Source: Microbacterium sp. Clip185 | Lineage (GTDB): Bacteria; Actinomycetota; Actinomycetes; Actinomycetales; Microbacteriaceae | DNA: 64,000 bases | NCBI RefSeq assembly: GCF_028743715.1 | Contig: NZ_CP117996.1 | Coordinates: forward strand, 3,224,001-3,288,000 | Reading direction: 5' to 3' | Shown: one piece after another, positions 18,669 through 24,346 of the stretch | How positions within the stretch are numbered: position 1 is the first letter of the stretch | How the letters are laid out: each line of letters opens with the position of its first letter | The notes under the pieces: generated by a model | Seen by the model: only the letters and a program-made list of their open reading frames with translations | Told to the model about the DNA's origin: nothing | Databases searched by the model: none | Program-made: the position numbers and the translations under genes

Positions 18669-18702
18669 CTCGCCCGCATCCCTTCGCGCTCCCCTTCCAC
18701 CG

Positions 18703-18769
18703 CGAGACTGCATTTCGAGCACGAGATCACTGTTAATACCCGTGATCTCGTGACGGAGATGCAGTCTCG
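18703..18769. repeat. Imperfect 28-bp inverted repeat after the YhgE gene
   Basis: Positions 18703-18730 and 18742-18769 pair at 24 of 28 bases around an 11-base loop. The outer arm starts CGAGACTGCAT and the inner arm ends CACGAGATCAC. It starts 35 bases after the YhgE stop. It may act as terminator or be a member of a dispersed palindromic repeat family. Confidence 0.7.
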
Positions 18770-19016
18770 TGGGGTGGGGTCCACGCCGGGGACGGATGCG
18801 GGCGCATACACCGCACGCCCAGGGTCCTGCCACGGTTCGTCCAGAAAGGCCCCCTACGGTGTCCAGGTCGCCGGCGAGCCCGAACTCGCACGGCGGCTGC
18901 CCCGACGACGGGGCCTGTCCACCCTGCTGGCGCAGCGCGTGATCGTCCCGACGTCACTCGCGCCCGCGCGTTCTCCGTGCCCCCGCGTCAGGCAGGCCGC
19001 TTGACCCTGGAGCCCT
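18770..19016 (+). other. Long leader before the transglycosylase-like gene
   Basis: This 247-base stretch has no credible gene. It contains short GC-rich complementary segments such as GCCCCGAC/GACGGGGC around 18899-18916. Leaders of secreted cell-wall hydrolases in actinobacteria often carry a c-di-AMP (ydaO) riboswitch; I cannot match that consensus convincingly here. Confidence 0.25.
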
Positions 19017-19751
19017 ATGCCCCGCTTTCGTCGCGCCCTGTTGAGCGCCGCCGCCCTCGTGGTGGCCGTCCCCCTTCTCGTTCCCACTGCGGCGTTCGCA
19101 GCCTCCGACGACGCGGCGCCCACGCCGACACCGTCGGCCTCCACGCCCCCGGCCGACCCCGAGCCCCGCGCGATCGACCTCGATGCATCGCTGTACCTGA
19201 CGCTCGCGCGGTCGGTGTCGGCATCGGCGGCCGGTAAGGCGGACACCGCGACGCTCGACAAGGAGATCGCCCGGTTGAGCTCATCGACGGATCTCTCGGA
19301 TGCGGTGGCCGAAGCCTCCATCACGGTGTTGCGCGACGCGACCGCTCGCGTCACCGCGGAGCGCGACGCGTACGACGCCCAGGTGGCCGCCGAGCAGCAG
19401 GCCGCCGCCGCGGCGGCCGCAGCCGCGATCGCTCAGGCGAACACCCCGGACGGCGCCCGCGCGGCGGCGCGCAGCATGGCGGCTGAGACCTACGGCTGGG
19501 GCGACGATCAGTTCTCGTGCCTCGAGTCGCTCTGGCAGCGCGAGTCCAGCTGGAACTACCAGGCGTACAACGACGGCAGCGGCGCCACCGGCATCCCCCA
19601 GGCGCTGCCCGGATCGAAGATGGCCTCGGCCGGCGACGACTGGCAGACCAACGCGATCACGCAGATCCGCTGGGGCCTGGACTACATCGACCGCGCCTAC
19701 GGCACCCCGTGCGCGGCGTGGGGTCACTCGCAGGCGACCAGCTGGTACTGA
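19017..19751 (+). CDS. Secreted transglycosylase-like protein (aggregation-promoting factor C-terminal type)
   Basis: The 244-residue protein has a signal peptide (basic RFRR, hydrophobic core, cleavage near AAFAA), a Pro/Thr-rich linker, a helical Ala-rich coiled region (residues ~65-150), and a C-terminal lysozyme-like domain. That domain has DDQFSCLESLWQRESSWNYQ, with the catalytic Glu in the ExSW context, then GSGATGIPQALPGSKM and the terminal WGLDYIDRAYGTPCAAW. Homologs cleave or remodel peptidoglycan outside the cell. ATG 19017 follows CTGGAG. The stop lies 16 bases before a terminator hairpin. Confidence 0.88.
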   Translation: MPRFRRALLSAAALVVAVPLLVPTAAFAASDDAAPTPTPSASTPPADPEPRAIDLDASLYLTLARSVSASAAGKADTATLDKEIARLSSSTDLSDAVAEASITVLRDATARVTAERDAYDAQVAAEQQAAAAAAAAAIAQANTPDGARAAARSMAAETYGWGDDQFSCLESLWQRESSWNYQAYNDGSGATGIPQALPGSKMASAGDDWQTNAITQIRWGLDYIDRAYGTPCAAWGHSQATSWY

Positions 19752-19765
19752 GAGCCCTCACGACG

Positions 19766-19794
19766 AAGGGGCACCCGCATCGCGCGGGTGCCCC
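19766..19794. repeat. Left copy of a 29-bp direct repeat containing a terminator hairpin
   Basis: AA followed by an 11-bp perfect stem (GGGGCACCCGC, loop ATCGC) terminates the transglycosylase gene. An identical 29 bases, in the same orientation, lie at 23447-23475. The pair brackets an AT-richer insert and may be attachment-site-like. Confidence 0.75.
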
Positions 19795-20088
19795 CGCGTG
19801 AGGCGGGGACCCTTCATGTGGCGAACGGCGTAACGAACCGTTGTGCGGAGATCTCGGACGGCCCAGCGCTCTCGTTCGCGATCATTGCGAGCGGGCCGCT
19901 GTTCCAGCGGCTTCTCAACCAGGAAATCGAGGAGTGCGGGCGTCTCTGGCCGGATCGATACCCCGGCCGCTCGGTCGGACATCCTCCGCTCCCTTCTGAA
20001 TGTTGCAGCGCTGGCGGCGCTTAGGTGAGGCCGCAGGACTCACAAGGCCAGGCCTTCGTCGCCTGGACCGTCGCCGCCTTTCGGCTGG
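19795..20088. other. Intergenic stretch with possible gene remnant
   Basis: No intact gene is apparent. On the plus strand two frames read like a frameshifted helical C-terminus (ALSFAIIASGPLFQRLLNQE in one, SDILRSLLNVAALAALR in the next, stop at 20026-20028), resembling the end of a TetR-type regulator. There is no start or DNA-binding domain, so this is only a possible remnant. Confidence 0.25.
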
Positions 20089-20448
20089 TCAGAGGAGCCC
20101 TGCGCCGATAGCGAGCGCCAGATAGTCCAGCCCTGCAACCAGGATCGAGACAGCACCTCCTACGCCCAGCACGGGCCAGGGGTTTCTGCCCCACACGAGC
20201 GGTCGGAGAGTGGCGAGCACGGCAGTTACCAGCCATATACCTATCAGAGCGGGCTGTATCCCATTCAACGAGATGTAGATGAGGGTGTCATTGCAAGGGC
20301 GTGATGCGGAGCACCCCGCCACCATCAATCCATTGAGCTGAACGACAGTCCATGCCGCTGCCGAGAGGAGCAGATGAAGAACGACTCCCGGCAGCGCTCC
20401 GAGTGCGTACCCGAAGCGCTGACGAGAGTCGTACAGAGGCTTGATCAC
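20089..20448 (-). CDS. Small integral membrane protein of unknown function
   Basis: The 119-residue protein has about three to four hydrophobic spans (residues ~15-35, ~65-85, ~93-118). The start is GTG 20448, directly abutting the stop of the frameshifted gene upstream, which implies translational coupling. I recognise no family. Codon usage is less GC-biased than in the flanking core genes, in line with a foreign insert. Confidence 0.55.
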   Translation of the reverse strand: MIKPLYDSRQRFGYALGALPGVVLHLLLSAAAWTVVQLNGLMVAGCSASRPCNDTLIYISLNGIQPALIGIWLVTAVLATLRPLVWGRNPWPVLGVGGAVSILVAGLDYLALAIGAGLL

Positions 20449-20788
20449 CTAGTGCAGCTGTCCTTCAAGAAGTTCTGTCATCTGCTCGATCTCAGCGGCG
20501 TACTTGTCAGCGTTGCGGGGGGGTGATGAACGCGAGGCTGGGCAACTCTCCCGAGCCGGCGGCAGGAAGCGTGTACTCCGGAACTTGAGCCTCGGACCCG
20601 TCACCTGGCACAACTCGACTGTAGTCGACCACCCTCGAACCAAGCTTGTACCCACCGAGATAGGCCGCGTTGCCCGTGTACCAGTTCTGGGCAGCGTTAT
20701 CGAGCGGCTTCCCTGCTTGGCAGTAACCGTCTGGATGCTGGGGGAGAGAGGGTAACCCACCTCCCGGCCCTCTCTCGATCCCCGTCAA
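20449..20788 (-). pseudogene. Frameshifted hypothetical gene (C7 tract)
   Basis: Two overlapping minus-strand frames appear to be one gene. The first runs from TTG 20788 and ends in LAFITPPQR at a stop. The second continues as NADKYAAEIEQMTELLEGQL to a TAG at 20449. Removing one base from a run of seven C (minus strand, around 20517-20523) joins them into FITPRNADKYAAE. It is either a real mutation or a homopolymer sequencing error. The product is unrecognised and has no clear membrane span. The next gene starts right at its stop. Confidence 0.55.
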
Positions 20789-20934
20789 CTCATCGCACGG
20801 GAGCCGCCAGCTTCTTCAACGTCGTGCCAGGTTGTGCCGTCCCACAGCCAGCCGCGCCGCGATCCGTAGTGCCTCACCCACGGGTGTGTGATTGCCGTGT
20901 CCAGGTGGGCTCCGCTGATGGGAGGCCCATTGCT
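20785..20934 (-). pseudogene. Gene fragment with a GWLWDGTTW motif
   Basis: An open stretch of 49 codons ends in GWLWDGTTWHDVEEAGG and a TGA overlapping the TTG of the frameshifted gene. The Trp-rich turn resembles the short DUF2510-type GWYPDP...WDGTxW module found in actinobacterial membrane proteins. No good start codon or RBS is present. It may be the 5' part of the same decayed gene. Confidence 0.25.
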
Positions 20935-21001
20935 TCACTTGGAACGGGCGGGAGATCCGTCAGCATGAGCGCATCTAGGAACTCGCCGCGTTGTCGTCGG
21001 G

Positions 21002-21274
21002 CTAGACAGGGTCCCGCATCGTTAACGGCCGGGGCGGAACGCCGCCACTTCGGTCAAGACATCGCGTGAGGCGGAGCTCATCAAGGTCCAGAACGAGCAT
21101 GGCACGAAGAAGTGTGTCCAGTGAGGATCCACCATGTCCGGTTTCTAGTCGACGAAATGTGTGCACCGCGATCTCAGCTTCGTACGCAACGCGCTCCTGT
21201 GAGAACCCAAGCTGGCGCCTAGCCCCCAGTAGTTGCTGTGCGACTTCATTCGATACCTGACGAAGTCGTCTCAC
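21002..21274 (-). CDS. XRE family helix-turn-helix regulator
   Basis: The 90-residue protein is a single lambda-repressor-like domain: LLGARRQLGFSQERVAYEAE, then VHTFRRLETG and a short C-terminal helix with LLRAMLVLDLDEL. The start is GTG 21274. A perfect 12-bp inverted repeat lies 21 bases upstream, a plausible operator. It is divergent from the cutinase gene. Small solitary XRE proteins of this kind are typical of integrated elements, where they keep element genes repressed. Confidence 0.8.
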   Translation of the reverse strand: MRRLRQVSNEVAQQLLGARRQLGFSQERVAYEAEIAVHTFRRLETGHGGSSLDTLLRAMLVLDLDELRLTRCLDRSGGVPPRPLTMRDPV

Positions 21275-21294
21275 CTATCCCCACCCCCCCAGAC

Positions 21295-21325
21295 AGCTTC
21301 CGAGGCTGCCCCTGCCTCGGAAGCT
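21295..21325. promoter_or_regulatory. Perfect 12-bp inverted repeat between XRE and cutinase genes
   Basis: AGCTTCCGAGGC, a 7-base loop, then its exact complement. The position 21 bases before the XRE start, in a divergent promoter region, suits an operator for the XRE dimer; a terminator is unlikely between divergent genes. Confidence 0.55.
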
Positions 21326-21490
21326 AGCGGATCGACAACGCGACGCGCTACAACGTTTTCCTCCGTAGAAACTCGGTCGTATAGCGCTCCCGGCTGGCAA
21401 ACACAACCACAGATCTGTCCTGTTCACCACTTCCTCAAAGTTCTTTGATGTGGATCACCGACCTCGACACCGATCAGGAGATCCGAATCT

Positions 21491-22324
21491 ATGCCCAAGA
21501 AGAACACTCCCCCGAGGCGCGGCCTGCGCGCGCTGCTCGCAGCCCCTCTCATCGCGGCCCTCATCGTCGGAGGCACACTCGGGAGTGCGAGCGCTGCCAG
21601 CGCTGCGCAACCATCAGGCGTGTGCGCCGGCGCTAACGTCTTCATCGGAGTCCGCGGGACGAATGCTCCTGGCGGCTCAAACCCGAGTACGACTGGCAAC
21701 GCATGGCAGTCGGGCGGTATGGGCGACCAGGTGCAGGGTCTCGCGAACCACTTCAAGTACGATGCGCCTTACAGCAGCGCCTGGCCGACGTACGTGGAAT
21801 CGCTCAACTACCCAGCGTCGACCGACCTGATCGGCAGCATTGCGGCCGGCGTCCAGACGCTCCGCGCCGAGTTGAATTACATCGGATCGTTGTGTGGGGT
21901 GTTCACTCCGAACATCATCCTGGCGGGGCATTCGCAAGGCGCCGCGGTGATCTCTGGGGTCTTGAAGAACCCTGGTTTGCTCAACCAGCGAGCGAAACAA
22001 GCGATCAGAGCCGTTGCGCTCCTTGGCGACCCCTATCACTCGGCAAACATGCCGTACTCGATGCTCAACAACTCCAACTACGGAACCCTTGCGATGACAG
22101 CGGGGGAGTACAACACGATCTACGAGAACTTCCGCTTCTGGGGATGGGCGCAGTACAGCGAGAACATCGGCTGGGTCTCGAAAGTGCGTGACTACTGCTT
22201 CACGGGAGATGCCGCGTGCACTGGCAACCTGACAGACTCAGGCTGGCAGATTCACAACGCCTATACCGCTCTCACATCGCAGATCACATCGTGGATGGAC
22301 TACATGCTCACCAACACGGAATGA
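21491..22324 (+). CDS. Secreted cutinase family serine hydrolase
   Basis: The 277-residue protein has a signal peptide (MPKKN, then RRGLR and a hydrophobic core, cleavage near ASAAQ) and an alpha/beta-hydrolase domain of the cutinase family. The nucleophile is Ser148 in GHSQG. The likely acid is Asp240 in CFTGDAAC, bracketed by a predicted disulfide, and the base is His255 in WQIHNAY. Family members hydrolyse cutin, polyesters, triacylglycerols or envelope lipids outside the cell. ATG 21491 follows AGGAG. It sits inside the repeat-bounded insert, with a small membrane protein directly downstream. Confidence 0.88.
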   Translation: MPKKNTPPRRGLRALLAAPLIAALIVGGTLGSASAASAAQPSGVCAGANVFIGVRGTNAPGGSNPSTTGNAWQSGGMGDQVQGLANHFKYDAPYSSAWPTYVESLNYPASTDLIGSIAAGVQTLRAELNYIGSLCGVFTPNIILAGHSQGAAVISGVLKNPGLLNQRAKQAIRAVALLGDPYHSANMPYSMLNNSNYGTLAMTAGEYNTIYENFRFWGWAQYSENIGWVSKVRDYCFTGDAACTGNLTDSGWQIHNAYTALTSQITSWMDYMLTNTE

Positions 22325-22339
22325 GACAATCGCAGGACC

Positions 22340-22684
22340 ATGATTCCTGATGTGACTGACGGCCACCGTAACCGCGCCGGCCTCCCGGAGTTGCTACTCC
22401 TCGGGGTGCAAGCGCTGGTCGCGGTGGTCGTCGTGTTCTTCTCGTACTTCGTGGGGTTCGTTTCACCGGGCTGCAGCCCAACCTGCAACTACGATCTGTT
22501 CAACCGGATCAATGACGCTCTCCGGATCACCGTGGCCGTCGCCTTTCTGCTCTCAGCTGCGTTTGTTTTCGTTTCGTGGGTCATGGGAAAGCGCGGACGC
22601 TGGGGAGCAATCACTGGCATCATCGTCACGTTGCTCGCTGGAGTAATCGCCAGCATCGCCGGCTACGGCGCGTTCGCTCCATAG
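22340..22684 (+). CDS. Small membrane protein downstream of cutinase
   Basis: The 114-residue protein has three predicted spans (residues ~18-42, ~60-82, ~90-112). A short external loop contains SPGCSPTCNY with two Cys that could form a disulfide. It begins 15 bases after the cutinase stop and is probably cotranscribed. The family is unrecognised; partnership with the cutinase is suggested only by position. Confidence 0.6.
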   Translation: MIPDVTDGHRNRAGLPELLLLGVQALVAVVVVFFSYFVGFVSPGCSPTCNYDLFNRINDALRITVAVAFLLSAAFVFVSWVMGKRGRWGAITGIIVTLLAGVIASIAGYGAFAP

Positions 22685-22723
22685 GACGTTCAACCAGTCG
22701 CGCCAAGTCTTGGTCGGCGCTTG

Positions 22724-23410
22724 TCACTGTGGGGGAGTGGCCGGACTTCTGGGTGGCAGTGCGCGGCCGCTGATGAGCCCGCCGCTCTGGACGAGCCAAA
22801 ACGGCCCGACGGTCGCCTGGCGCACGTCCTGGGGCGGCACGACGTAGGTGTGCTGTGCTCGAGCAGAACGCAGCTCGTCTCCGGTGGCAGCGCCGGAGGA
22901 CTCGAGCCGCATCACCGTGCCCGCATAGCTGACGACAGACTCGGGCGCCTTCGACCGGCCGAAGATGAGCGCGGCGCCGCTGGACAGCGCGCGCTCGCGT
23001 CGTGTCTCGTCGTTGGAGATTCCCGCGACCGACTGGACGGCCAGCCACAGGCCGAGCCCCGCTGACCTGGCGGTTTCGAACATACTTCCCGCGGTGTCGC
23101 CGGGGTCGCTGTCGGCGGTGACCAGCTGAGCGAACTCGTCGACGAACACCACGCCGGGTGATTTGTCGCGGCCGCGCAGCCTCGTCGTCATCCACTGGCG
23201 AAGATCCAACAGCATGAGATCTCCGACGCGCGCTTCGGCTTCGTCGGCGGGGGAGAGGGGGACGATCGTCAGATCGGCGCCGCCGTCCCCGTAGGACCAG
23301 CCCGCGGCCGCTCGCTCCTCAGCTGCACGACTAACCGCGCGCGCAGCGTGCTGCGCCTCCTCCGCTCTCGACGGCGCCACCGTGCCCTCAGCAATCGTCG
23401 AGCTGAGCGT
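22724..23410 (-). pseudogene. C-terminal fragment of a VirD4/TraG-like conjugation coupling ATPase
   Basis: The frame is open from a TGA at 23411-23413 and encodes the C-terminal half of a TraG/VirD4-type motor. The Walker B strand is GVVFVDEFAQL, followed by FETARSAGLGLWLAVQSVAG, the sensor-like segment of coupling proteins. Then comes ALIFGRSKAPESV. The N-terminal membrane helices and the Walker A half are absent. The truncation lies 37 bases from the right-hand 29-bp repeat, so loss probably accompanied integration or deletion of a conjugative element. It is unlikely to be functional. Confidence 0.7.
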
Positions 23411-23446
23411 TCAAGTGAAATATCCGAGTGGGCTCCGTTTTGCAGA

Positions 23447-23475
23447 AAGGGGCACCCGCATCGCGCGGGTGCCCC
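23447..23475. repeat. Right copy of the 29-bp direct repeat/terminator hairpin
   Basis: Identical to 19766-19794, including the ATCGC loop in the same orientation although the gene it terminates (23492-24346) is on the opposite strand. That orientation argues for duplication of one site rather than two independent terminators. Confidence 0.75.
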
Positions 23476-23491
23476 TTGTCGATATGCGGCG

Positions 23492-24346
23492 TCAGAGCGC
23501 GGCGCGAAGCCCGTCGACCAGCGGCGTGGTCGGGCGACCGATGAGCTGCGAGAGCGTACGGTCCTCGGAGTCCAGGGCGCCGGCGGCGATGCCCGCGTCC
23601 AGCGCGGCGACGAAACCGGCCGTGCCCTCGTCGAGACCCACACCGCGGAGCGTCTCGAGCAGGTGCTCCTCGGACAGCGCCACATAGGTCACGTCGCGTC
23701 CGTGGATCTCGGCCGCGGCGGCGGCGAGATCGGCGTAGCCGAAAGCCACGTCGCCGGCGAGCTCGAGCACGCGGCCGAGGTACGCGTCGTCGGTTGCGAC
23801 GACGGCCGCGGCCTCGGCGTAGTCCGCGCGGGCGGCAGCGGCCACCTTCCCGTCGGCGACGGCGGCGGCGATCACGCCGGACTCGGCGGCGCGTGCCACA
23901 TCCTGTGCGTAGTTCTCGATGTACCAGTTGTTGCGAAGGATCGTGTGGCGAAGGCCGGATGCGGCGAGCGCCTCCTCGGTCGCGACGTGCTCGGCCGCCA
24001 GAGGCAGCGGGCTCGTGGTGGCGTGGTAGAGGCTCGTGTAGACCAGCCCCCCGACCTTCGCGGCCACGGCGGCGTCGATGACCGCCTGGTGCTGGGCGAG
24101 ACGCTTGCCGACCTCGGAGCCCGACACGAGCACGACGCGGTCGACCCCGGCGAACGCGGCGTCGAGCGTCTCGGGTGCGTCGTAGTCGACGACGGCCGTG
24201 CGCACGCCGCGGTCGGCGAGCTCCGCCACCTTGTCGAGGCTGCGGGAGCCTGCGACGACATCGGATGCGGCGACGCCGCGCTCGAGCAGGCTTTCGACGA
24301 TAAGACGGCCGAGGTGTCCGCTGGCGGCGGTGACGAGAATGGTCAT
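23492..24346 (-). CDS. NmrA-type NAD(P)H-binding oxidoreductase (QorB-like SDR)
   Basis: The 284-residue protein is an atypical short-chain dehydrogenase. The nucleotide-binding loop is VTAASGHLGRL at residues 5-15, and there is a second strand with AGSRSLDKV. TSLYHATTSPLPLAAEHVAT and LRNNWYIENYAQDV are hallmarks of the QorB/NmrA-like quinone reductase group. The full SDR Tyr-x-x-x-Lys pair is not evident. It is divergent from an HxlR regulator, a pairing common for redox-stress quinone reductases, so induction by quinones or electrophiles is likely. Confidence 0.85.
   Translation of the reverse strand: MTILVTAASGHLGRLIVESLLERGVAASDVVAGSRSLDKVAELADRGVRTAVVDYDAPETLDAAFAGVDRVVLVSGSEVGKRLAQHQAVIDAAVAAKVGGLVYTSLYHATTSPLPLAAEHVATEEALAASGLRHTILRNNWYIENYAQDVARAAESGVIAAAVADGKVAAAARADYAEAAAVVATDDAYLGRVLELAGDVAFGYADLAAAAAEIHGRDVTYVALSEEHLLETLRGVGLDEGTAGFVAALDAGIAAGALDSEDRTLSQLIGRPTTPLVDGLRAAL

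What the first reader, a model, noticed from the sequence alone, without database searches (positions are those of the whole stretch)
19766..23475. A 3.7-kb foreign insert appears to split one bidirectional terminator, leaving 29-bp direct repeats
Seen: the same 29 bases (hairpin GGGGCACCCGC with loop ATCGC) occur in the same orientation at 19766-19794 and 23447-23475. The gene ending at the left copy is on the plus strand and the one ending at the right copy is on the minus strand, yet the loop reads the same way on one strand. Two independent terminators would be mirror images. Removing the intervening DNA plus one copy leaves convergent genes sharing one terminator. The interior is AT-richer, with XRE, cutinase, decayed genes and a VirD4-like fragment truncated 37 bases from the repeat. 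Inference: site-specific or recombinational capture of part of a conjugative element, using a terminator hairpin as target. No integrase is present, so it is probably a remnant or is mobilised in trans.
Basis: partly seen in the sequence, partly recalled or inferred. Interest (0 to 1): 0.78.

Follow-up and report, generated by a model that had tools for sequence, protein, structure and literature searches.

The report
Foreign gene cassette between duplicated terminators
A 3.7-kb piece of foreign DNA, carrying a secreted lipase-like enzyme and its small membrane partner, sits between two copies of what was one gene terminator; the same gene pair lies between other, unrelated duplicated sequences in related bacteria, which suggests it moves between genomes without an enzyme of its own.

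Summary
The 29-mer is exact at both places, same orientation, and its hairpin is found nowhere else in the genome. Four related species carry one copy between the same two genes, loop in the same orientation. So a 3,652-bp insert split one bidirectional terminator and left a 29-bp duplication.

The wider result: the intact core of the insert is a cutinase-family exported hydrolase plus a small three-helix membrane protein. Of 21 Microbacterium loci examined with this cutinase (24 found), 10 lie between direct repeats of 29-247 bp, at eight sites with unrelated repeats. Empty sites with one repeat copy were found for the window, two other cutinase loci and one Abi-like insert; another tested locus did not fit. 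Ten inserts share no ends and contain no integrase or resolvase match, though resolvase-type genes lie 1-5 kb outside two of them. This resembles 'insertion with long target duplication', described for restriction-modification systems.

The window insert is best read as one such event: a decayed mosaic with a plasmid coupling-protein fragment, at a terminator. The hairpin is not the required target. Mechanism and function are inferred.

The parts
19017..19751 (+). Host gene left of the insert: secreted 244-aa protein with aggregation-promoting-factor C-terminal-like domain (transglycosylase-like)
   Evidence: NCBIfam NF052397, E 2e-34; conserved in the four empty-site species
19766..19794 (.). 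Left copy of the 29-bp duplication (terminator hairpin, loop ATCGC); keeps the left outer arm of the ancestral terminator
19795..23446 (.). Foreign insert, 3,652 bp, 62.8% G+C
   Evidence: absent in L003, L126, L127, L129, L130; G+C
20089..20448 (-). Small membrane protein (119 aa) of a second, broken cutinase pair
   Evidence: 63-66% identity to two ORFs in G190, 62% to one in G282
20452..20731 (-). Pseudogene: C-terminal part of a second cutinase-like gene, frame-shifted
   Evidence: matches residues 223-312 of the G190 protein in two frames, 65-66% identity; tblastx
21002..21274 (-). XRE/HTH regulator, divergent from the cutinase gene
   Evidence: PF13560, E 3e-4, below cut-off; similar ORFs beside cutinases in six other loci
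21491..22324 (+). Exported cutinase-family hydrolase, 277 aa; Ser148 (GHSQG), Asp240, His255 invariant
   Evidence: PF01083 E 1e-16; alignment of 23 sequences; AlphaFold2 mean pLDDT 88.5; best PDB matches acetylxylan esterases and cutinases; triad assignment from recall
22340..22684 (+). Small membrane protein, 114 aa, three hydrophobic segments and a C(x)3C loop; partner of the cutinase
   Evidence: no Pfam, NCBIfam or PADLOC family above cut-off
22724..23311 (-). C-terminal fragment of a plasmid coupling-protein-like (VirD4/TraD-like) gene
   Evidence: 91% DNA identity to G270 over 22731-23311, 79% to plasmid pNx66
23312..23446 (.). 135 bp of unknown origin between the coupling-protein fragment and the right repeat
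   Evidence: no match in G270 or plasmids; one weak 42-64-bp match in G106
23447..23475 (.). Right copy of the 29-bp duplication; keeps the right outer arm of the ancestral terminator
23492..24346 (-). Host gene right of the insert: NmrA-type oxidoreductase
   Evidence: PF05368; conserved in the empty-site species

Best explanation
The 3.65-kb segment is one case of 'insertion with long target duplication': foreign DNA was captured at a site whose sequence ended up duplicated on both sides, here 29 bp covering a bidirectional terminator hairpin. Its core cargo is a two-gene unit, an exported cutinase-family hydrolase plus a small three-helix membrane protein, sometimes with an XRE regulator. 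Related units in other Microbacterium species lie between direct repeats of different sequence and length (29-247 bp). Shown: the insertion, the single terminator in relatives, the recurrence, single-copy empty sites at four places (three cutinase sites, one Abi-like gene), no shared insert ends, no integrase or resolvase match inside the ten inserts. Inferred mechanism: a staggered or two-nick break in the host is filled in while a broken foreign fragment is joined in, so the stretch between the nicks is doubled; events at gene ends or terminators are retained because nothing is disrupted. Recombination between the repeats could later remove the unit cleanly. Speculative: the pair is a secreted toxin-like enzyme with a membrane immunity partner.
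For: Empty sites for the window in four species: G226 (same sequence as PS02066, L003), G227, G357, G135. Repeats flank 10 of 21 cutinase loci examined, 29-247 bp, E down to 1e-132; the repeats of the eight sites show no similarity to each other. Background: 3 of 80 control loci (1.27 Mb) have any repeat pair of >=28 bp and >=89% identity 0.9-6 kb apart; in 1.2 Mb of G159 the 11 pairs of >=92% identity enclose about 2%. Against 2%, 8 of 19 sites has P 1.6e-9; under the 92% limit L190 drops out, 7 of 19, P 5e-8. Empty sites with one repeat copy: G002 for L186, 1 of 7 relatives compared; G010, G053, G012, G017 for L188, 4 of 24 loci compared; G322 and G268 for the Abi-like insert in L184. No common insert ends. 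No PF00589 or PF00239 match between the repeats of any of the ten. The window insert ends inside a plasmid gene. [quoted passage not shown] similar in PMC3031569).
Against: The window's 29 bp is the shortest of the set and nearly coincides with the hairpin, as an att core might. 11 of 21 cutinase loci show no such repeat pair. Resolvase-type genes lie outside but near two repeat pairs: about 1.0 kb from L190's, 3.3 and 4.8 kb from L187's. For L183 none of 24 relatives' loci compared shows the repeat beside the flank, and in G023 and G001 both flanks adjoin without repeat or cassette; the repeat there also contains the end of the membrane-protein gene. L180's left flank was not found in the relatives, and L184 has about 1.5 kb extra. 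In L188's case 20 of 24 relatives' loci have the flanks arranged otherwise or lack one. None of 7 loci from other genera has a comparable repeat pair (L240 has IS-type repeats; L241 a 79% pair not enclosing the cutinase). No break-repair enzyme was looked for.
Confidence: 0.6

Rival explanations
1. Remnant of an integrative mobilizable element whose integrase used the terminator hairpin as attB: 11-bp arms around a 5-bp spacer resemble a tyrosine-recombinase core (recalled). The integrase was later deleted, or acted in trans.
For: Relatives of the broken pair lie in two G190 islands with tyrosine integrases and tRNA-like repeats of 51 and 24 bp. The insert carries a plasmid coupling-protein fragment. 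The duplication nearly equals the hairpin. Resolvase-type genes lie near L190 and L187.
Against: No integrase in the insert; other cutinase units are flanked by unrelated repeats with no common core; the hairpin is in 5 of 366 genus genomes and no second element using it was seen.
Confidence: 0.24
2. Homologous single crossover: a circle carrying the cassette and a stretch homologous to the target integrated, so the repeats are homology arms, not duplicated target.
For: Three species carry related cassettes at the same ABC-transporter end (L180, L184, L186); L183 fits target duplication poorly.
Against: Repeat copies are 97.9-99.3% identical within each genome against 89.6-96.5% between the filled genomes, and pair by genome in the tree, unlike donor and recipient arms unless gene conversion followed. 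29 bp is very short for this.
Confidence: 0.1
3. Old insertion at each site with concerted evolution of the repeats and frequent clean loss, so that 'empty sites' are excisions, not ancestral states.
For: Pairs by genome in the tree; an empty genome (L203) nests among filled ones, with weak support (0.53).
Against: For the window all four species with the hairpin are empty; cassettes in L180/L184/L186 are 70-79% identical while the host gene is 93%, more like separate acquisitions.
Confidence: 0.05
4. Two independent terminators that happen to be identical.
For: Terminators of this general shape are common in actinobacteria (recalled).
Against: 29 identical bases, same loop orientation, hairpin nowhere else in the genome, one copy in four relatives.
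Confidence: 0.01

Closest known systems
Insertion with long target duplication of restriction-modification systems (Nobusato 2000; Furuta 2010; known to me through passages of PMC3874152, PMC3031569 and PMC4978471)
   Same: Small conflict-type gene unit, no recombinase of its own, between long variable direct repeats; empty sites with one copy in relatives
   Different: Cargo is an exported hydrolase and membrane protein, in an actinobacterium; the window's duplication is shorter (29 bp) and is a terminator
Tyrosine-integrase genomic islands (IME/ICE), e.g. the two G190 islands
   Same: Direct repeats at both ends; related cargo; conjugation-type gene fragment
   Different: No integrase in the insert; repeats elsewhere are unrelated sequences, not one att site
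Cutinase-like proteins of mycobacteria, e.g. Rv3802c, MSMEG_6394
   Same: Cutinase fold; export signal and catalytic residues as read from the sequence
   Different: 12-15% identity in the structural alignment; here paired with a small membrane protein in a mobile unit
Toxin-immunity or toxin-antitoxin pairs
   Same: Tight two-gene unit, patchy, mobile, divergent between species
   Different: No toxicity or immunity shown

Membership tests
Insertion with long target duplication | Unit lies between direct repeats of the target | tested here: met
   29 bp in the window; 29-247 bp in 10 of 21 loci
Insertion with long target duplication | Relatives carry one copy of the repeat and no unit | tested here: met
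   Window, L186, L188, Abi-like insert of L184; not met for L183, unclear for L180 and L184's cutinase
Insertion with long target duplication | Duplication long and variable (order of 100 bp) | tested here: inconclusive
   Met for the set; the window's own 29 bp is at the short end
Restriction-modification system with long target duplication | Cargo is a restriction-modification system | tested here: not met
   Cargo is cutinase plus membrane protein, so it is not of that class; it works like it
Integrative element (IME/ICE) with tyrosine or serine integrase | Integrase gene in the element | tested here: not met
   None among 7 insert ORFs; this genome's PF00589 and PF00239 matches lie elsewhere
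Integrative element (IME/ICE) with tyrosine or serine integrase | Same att core used by related elements | tested here: not met
   Hairpin at one locus only among 366 genus genomes; repeats of related units are unrelated
Transposon/IS | Terminal inverted repeats shared by copies | tested here: not met
   No terminal similarity seen among ten inserts except the three at one site
Cutinase family (PF01083) | Profile score, fold and conserved catalytic residues | tested here: met
Toxin-immunity pair | Toxic effector neutralised by partner | not testable with these tools
   Only gene pairing seen

The most novel reading that the evidence does not exclude
Cutinase-membrane pairs are a class of recombinase-free mobile cassettes: a secreted lipolytic toxin with a membrane immunity partner that spreads through Microbacterium by insertion with long target duplication, as restriction-modification systems do, together with other conflict or exported-protein genes that lie between duplicated terminators.
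Probability: 0.24. Interest if true: 0.82.

Novelty: new variant of a known kind. Interest (0 to 1): 0.6.

Why it matters
How small gene units without a recombinase get into new genomic places is unsolved; the cases I saw in print are restriction-modification systems. A recurrent cargo with several fresh cases, some with empty sites in sequenced relatives, makes the junctions and the repair pathway testable. If the cutinase pair is a toxin with its immunity, it would link this form of mobility to conflict genes in general. It also shows how a decayed insert can be told apart from a native intergenic region.

Tried and rejected
Phage origin: no DNA match to the insert and no protein match to the cutinase in 50,697 phage records. 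Plasmid origin of the cutinase: two distant plasmid hits only. Terminal inverted repeats or common ends: none seen. Hairpin as necessary target: a strong hairpin (0-9 of 150 random windows as low) lies in the repeats of the window, the shared L180/L184/L186 site, G159 357k and 1163k; G159 827k is weaker (17 of 150); the other eight repeats are like random windows (51-92 of 150). An earlier script that counted only perfect stems missed imperfect hairpins and was replaced. L240: its repeats surround an IS256-like fragment; not counted. G159 1163k: the related genome G322 holds similar cargo there with one repeat only, so not an empty site. The coupling-protein relative: no PDB hit by sequence. 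Membrane-protein search: only itself among 31 candidates, a search limited to shared 5-residue words. A search of 58 relatives with the left host gene found matches in 56 but gave no closer empty site. Papers: cutinase with Microbacterium and direct repeats, 0 papers; cutinase family protein with genomic island and Microbacterium, 0 papers; terminator as integration site gave 2 listings that I did not open; a search for flanking long repeats gave 7 listings, not opened except PMC4978471. Cutinase as interbacterial toxin: 40 papers held 4 of 5 terms; in the 8 listed 'cutinase' occurred 0 times. Nobusato 2000 and Furuta 2010 themselves were not seen (Furuta not held); I read passages citing them. 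Not tested: empty sites for L175, L176, L187, L190 and three of the four G159 candidates; presence of Ku/LigD.
Full report
OBSERVATION. The 29-mer AAGGGGCACCCGCATCGCGCGGGTGCCCC is exact at 19766-19794 and 23447-23475, same strand. In the 3,305,635-base genome (one contig) the hairpin with any 5-base loop and up to two mismatches occurs only there. The 3,652 bp between are poorer in G+C (62.8%) than each of 531 equal-sized windows elsewhere in the 64 kb.

EMPTY SITE. A genus search (366 genomes) with exact 10-base arms and a free loop found the hairpin in 5 genomes: the window's genome (twice) and G226, G227, G135, G357 (once each). In all four the single hairpin lies between the same two genes and the loop has the same orientation (G135 has one loop change); L003 (Microbacteriaceae bacterium PS02066) shows the same sequence as G226. 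In three of the four (G227, G135, G357) the inverted repeat runs on well beyond 11 bp per arm; in G226 the left arm is imperfect. In the window the left copy keeps an outer left arm (ACGACG) and the right copy keeps an outer right arm (TTGTCG). So one bidirectional terminator was split and 29 bp were doubled. This is shown, not inferred.

WHAT THE INSERT IS. From left to right: about 290 bp with one short similarity to G072; a 119-aa membrane protein and a frame-shifted C-terminal piece of a cutinase-like gene, both like a gene pair in G190; an 81-bp similarity to G053; an XRE-type regulator; a 277-aa exported cutinase; a 114-aa membrane protein; a C-terminal fragment of a plasmid coupling-protein-like gene, 91% identical in DNA to G270 and 79% to plasmid pNx66 up to base 23311; and 135 bp with only one weak match, in G106. 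The name 'coupling protein' rests on a weak NCBIfam hit of the G270 relative (20 bits, cut-off 366) and on plasmid context. The insert is a mosaic with broken parts. The cutinase has PF01083, invariant Ser148, Asp240 and His255 in 23 sequences, a confident model (mean pLDDT 88.5) and PDB matches to acetylxylan esterases and cutinases.

THE RECURRENT PATTERN. The cutinase is patchy: 20 of 361 genus genomes at E 1e-8, and 7 genomes besides the window's among 329 of the family at E 1e-12. The 26 hits make 24 loci; I examined 21 and left out G191, G144 and G096, the weakest or partial hits. In 20 of the 21 a small membrane protein with three hydrophobic segments and a C(x)3-5C loop follows the cutinase; for L183 it was seen but missed by the hydropathy filter, and L185 has no convincing one. 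Of the 7 loci in other genera, L240, L242 and L243 have such a partner. Ten of the 21 loci lie between direct repeats: window 29 bp; L175 113; L176 about 100 with a gap; L180 194; L183 159; L184 190; L186 161; L187 247; L188 135; L190 65. The repeats are unrelated except that L180, L184 and L186 share one site, the end of an ABC-transporter gene. Eleven loci, among them L143 inside an island with tRNA-like repeats, have none. Controls: 3 of 80 unrelated loci (1,272,007 bases) have any repeat pair of >=28 bp, >=89% identity, 0.9-6 kb apart; by eye they are a palindromic repeat, repeats inside one gene and coding similarity. In 1.2 Mb of G159 eleven pairs (>=28 bp, >=92%, 0.9-9 kb) enclose 23.4 kb, about 2%. 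Eight of 19 distinct sites against 2% has P 1.6e-9; with the 92% limit L190 drops out and 7 of 19 has P 5e-8. The background is one genome, so this is a guide.

RECOMBINASES. None of the tyrosine-integrase (PF00589) or resolvase (PF00239) matches in these genomes lies between the repeats of any of the ten loci. But resolvase-type genes lie about 1.0 kb outside the repeats of L190 and 3.3 and 4.8 kb outside those of L187. A recombinase in trans is therefore not excluded.

EMPTY SITES ELSEWHERE. L186: G002 has flank, one repeat and ABC gene in a row (1 of 7 relatives compared). L188: G010, G053, G012 and G017 have both flanks and one repeat within about 200 bp (4 of 24 loci; in 3 more the repeat lies 0.8-1.2 kb off, in 10 the flanks are rearranged, in 7 one flank is missing). 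In L184 a second repeat pair (150 bp, 98%) encloses an Abi-like gene (PF07751, 26.6 bits, cut-off 25.6; PADLOC AbiD E 3e-4); L180 and L186 show one copy (about 95 bp aligned) and no gene there. Against: for L183 none of 24 relatives' loci has the repeat beside the flank, G023 and G001 have both flanks adjoining without it, and the repeat contains the end of the membrane-protein gene. L180's left flank is not in the relatives and L184 has 1.5 kb extra. L175, L176, L187 and L190 were not tested.

AGE. At the shared ABC site, repeat copies are 97.9-99.3% identical within a genome and 89.6-96.5% between filled genomes; they pair by genome (support 0.90-0.94). The host gene is 93% identical between the three species, the cassettes 70-79%. 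Either separate acquisitions at one favoured site, or an old insertion with repeats kept alike by gene conversion.

TERMINATORS. Strong hairpins lie in the repeats of the window, the ABC site and two G159 candidates (357k, 1163k), a weaker one in 827k; the other repeats fold like random windows. In the G159 survey four non-tRNA pairs looked to me like inserts (357065, 697023, 827419, 1162992; lower G+C and non-coding repeats; the other pairs I set aside by eye); three of the cargoes begin, by eye, like exported proteins. I take the terminator as a frequent but not necessary place, since an insert there harms no gene.

MECHANISM. The inserts share no ends. Fill-in of a staggered break with capture of a foreign fragment would double the stretch between the nicks and would explain variable lengths and broken cargo. 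This step is inference. For the window alone, cleavage of an extruded hairpin at its base could double just the palindrome; that is a thought, not a test. An integrase using the hairpin remains the main rival.

KNOWN KIND. [quoted passage not shown] PMC4978471 (passage) mentions one H. pylori RM cluster flanked by a direct repeat that may have come in this way. The present case works like that; its cargo is not RM. I found no paper on cutinase units of this kind with the searches.

Noticed in passing
L184:14910-17282: A 150-bp repeat pair (98%) encloses an Abi-like gene; two related genomes have the empty site with one repeat.
   Followed up: yes
L313:17065-18589, L337:7419-8998, L354:2992-4093 (G159): Three small inserts (1.0-1.5 kb) with ORFs that begin like exported proteins lie between duplicated terminator-like hairpins in one genome.
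   Followed up: partly
L143 with L194/L196, L144 with L195/L197 (G190): Two islands with tyrosine integrase, resolvase and tRNA-like repeats (51 and 24 bp) carry relatives of the broken cutinase pair or of its membrane protein.
   Followed up: partly
L190 (G324:C11:43228-43617) and L187 (G282:C1:198784-200724): Resolvase-type genes lie 1.0 kb and 3.3-4.8 kb outside the repeats that flank these cutinase units.
   Followed up: partly
L176, L181, L182, L183, L189: HTH/XRE ORFs similar to the window's lie next to the cutinase, divergent in four of the five, suggesting a regulated three-gene unit.
   Followed up: partly
18700-18775: A long imperfect palindrome between genes; part of it aligns in the opposite orientation in relatives L003 and L126.
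   Followed up: no
L240:1680-8411: Cutinase pair of another genus beside repeats with an IS256-like transposase fragment.
   Followed up: partly
L356:2481-7339 (G322): Cargo 68% like the G159 1163k insert at the same place, but only one repeat copy was found.
   Followed up: partly
L330:17023-18337 (G159): A 1.2-kb low-G+C insert between 55-bp repeats at a gene end, content unclear.
   Followed up: no
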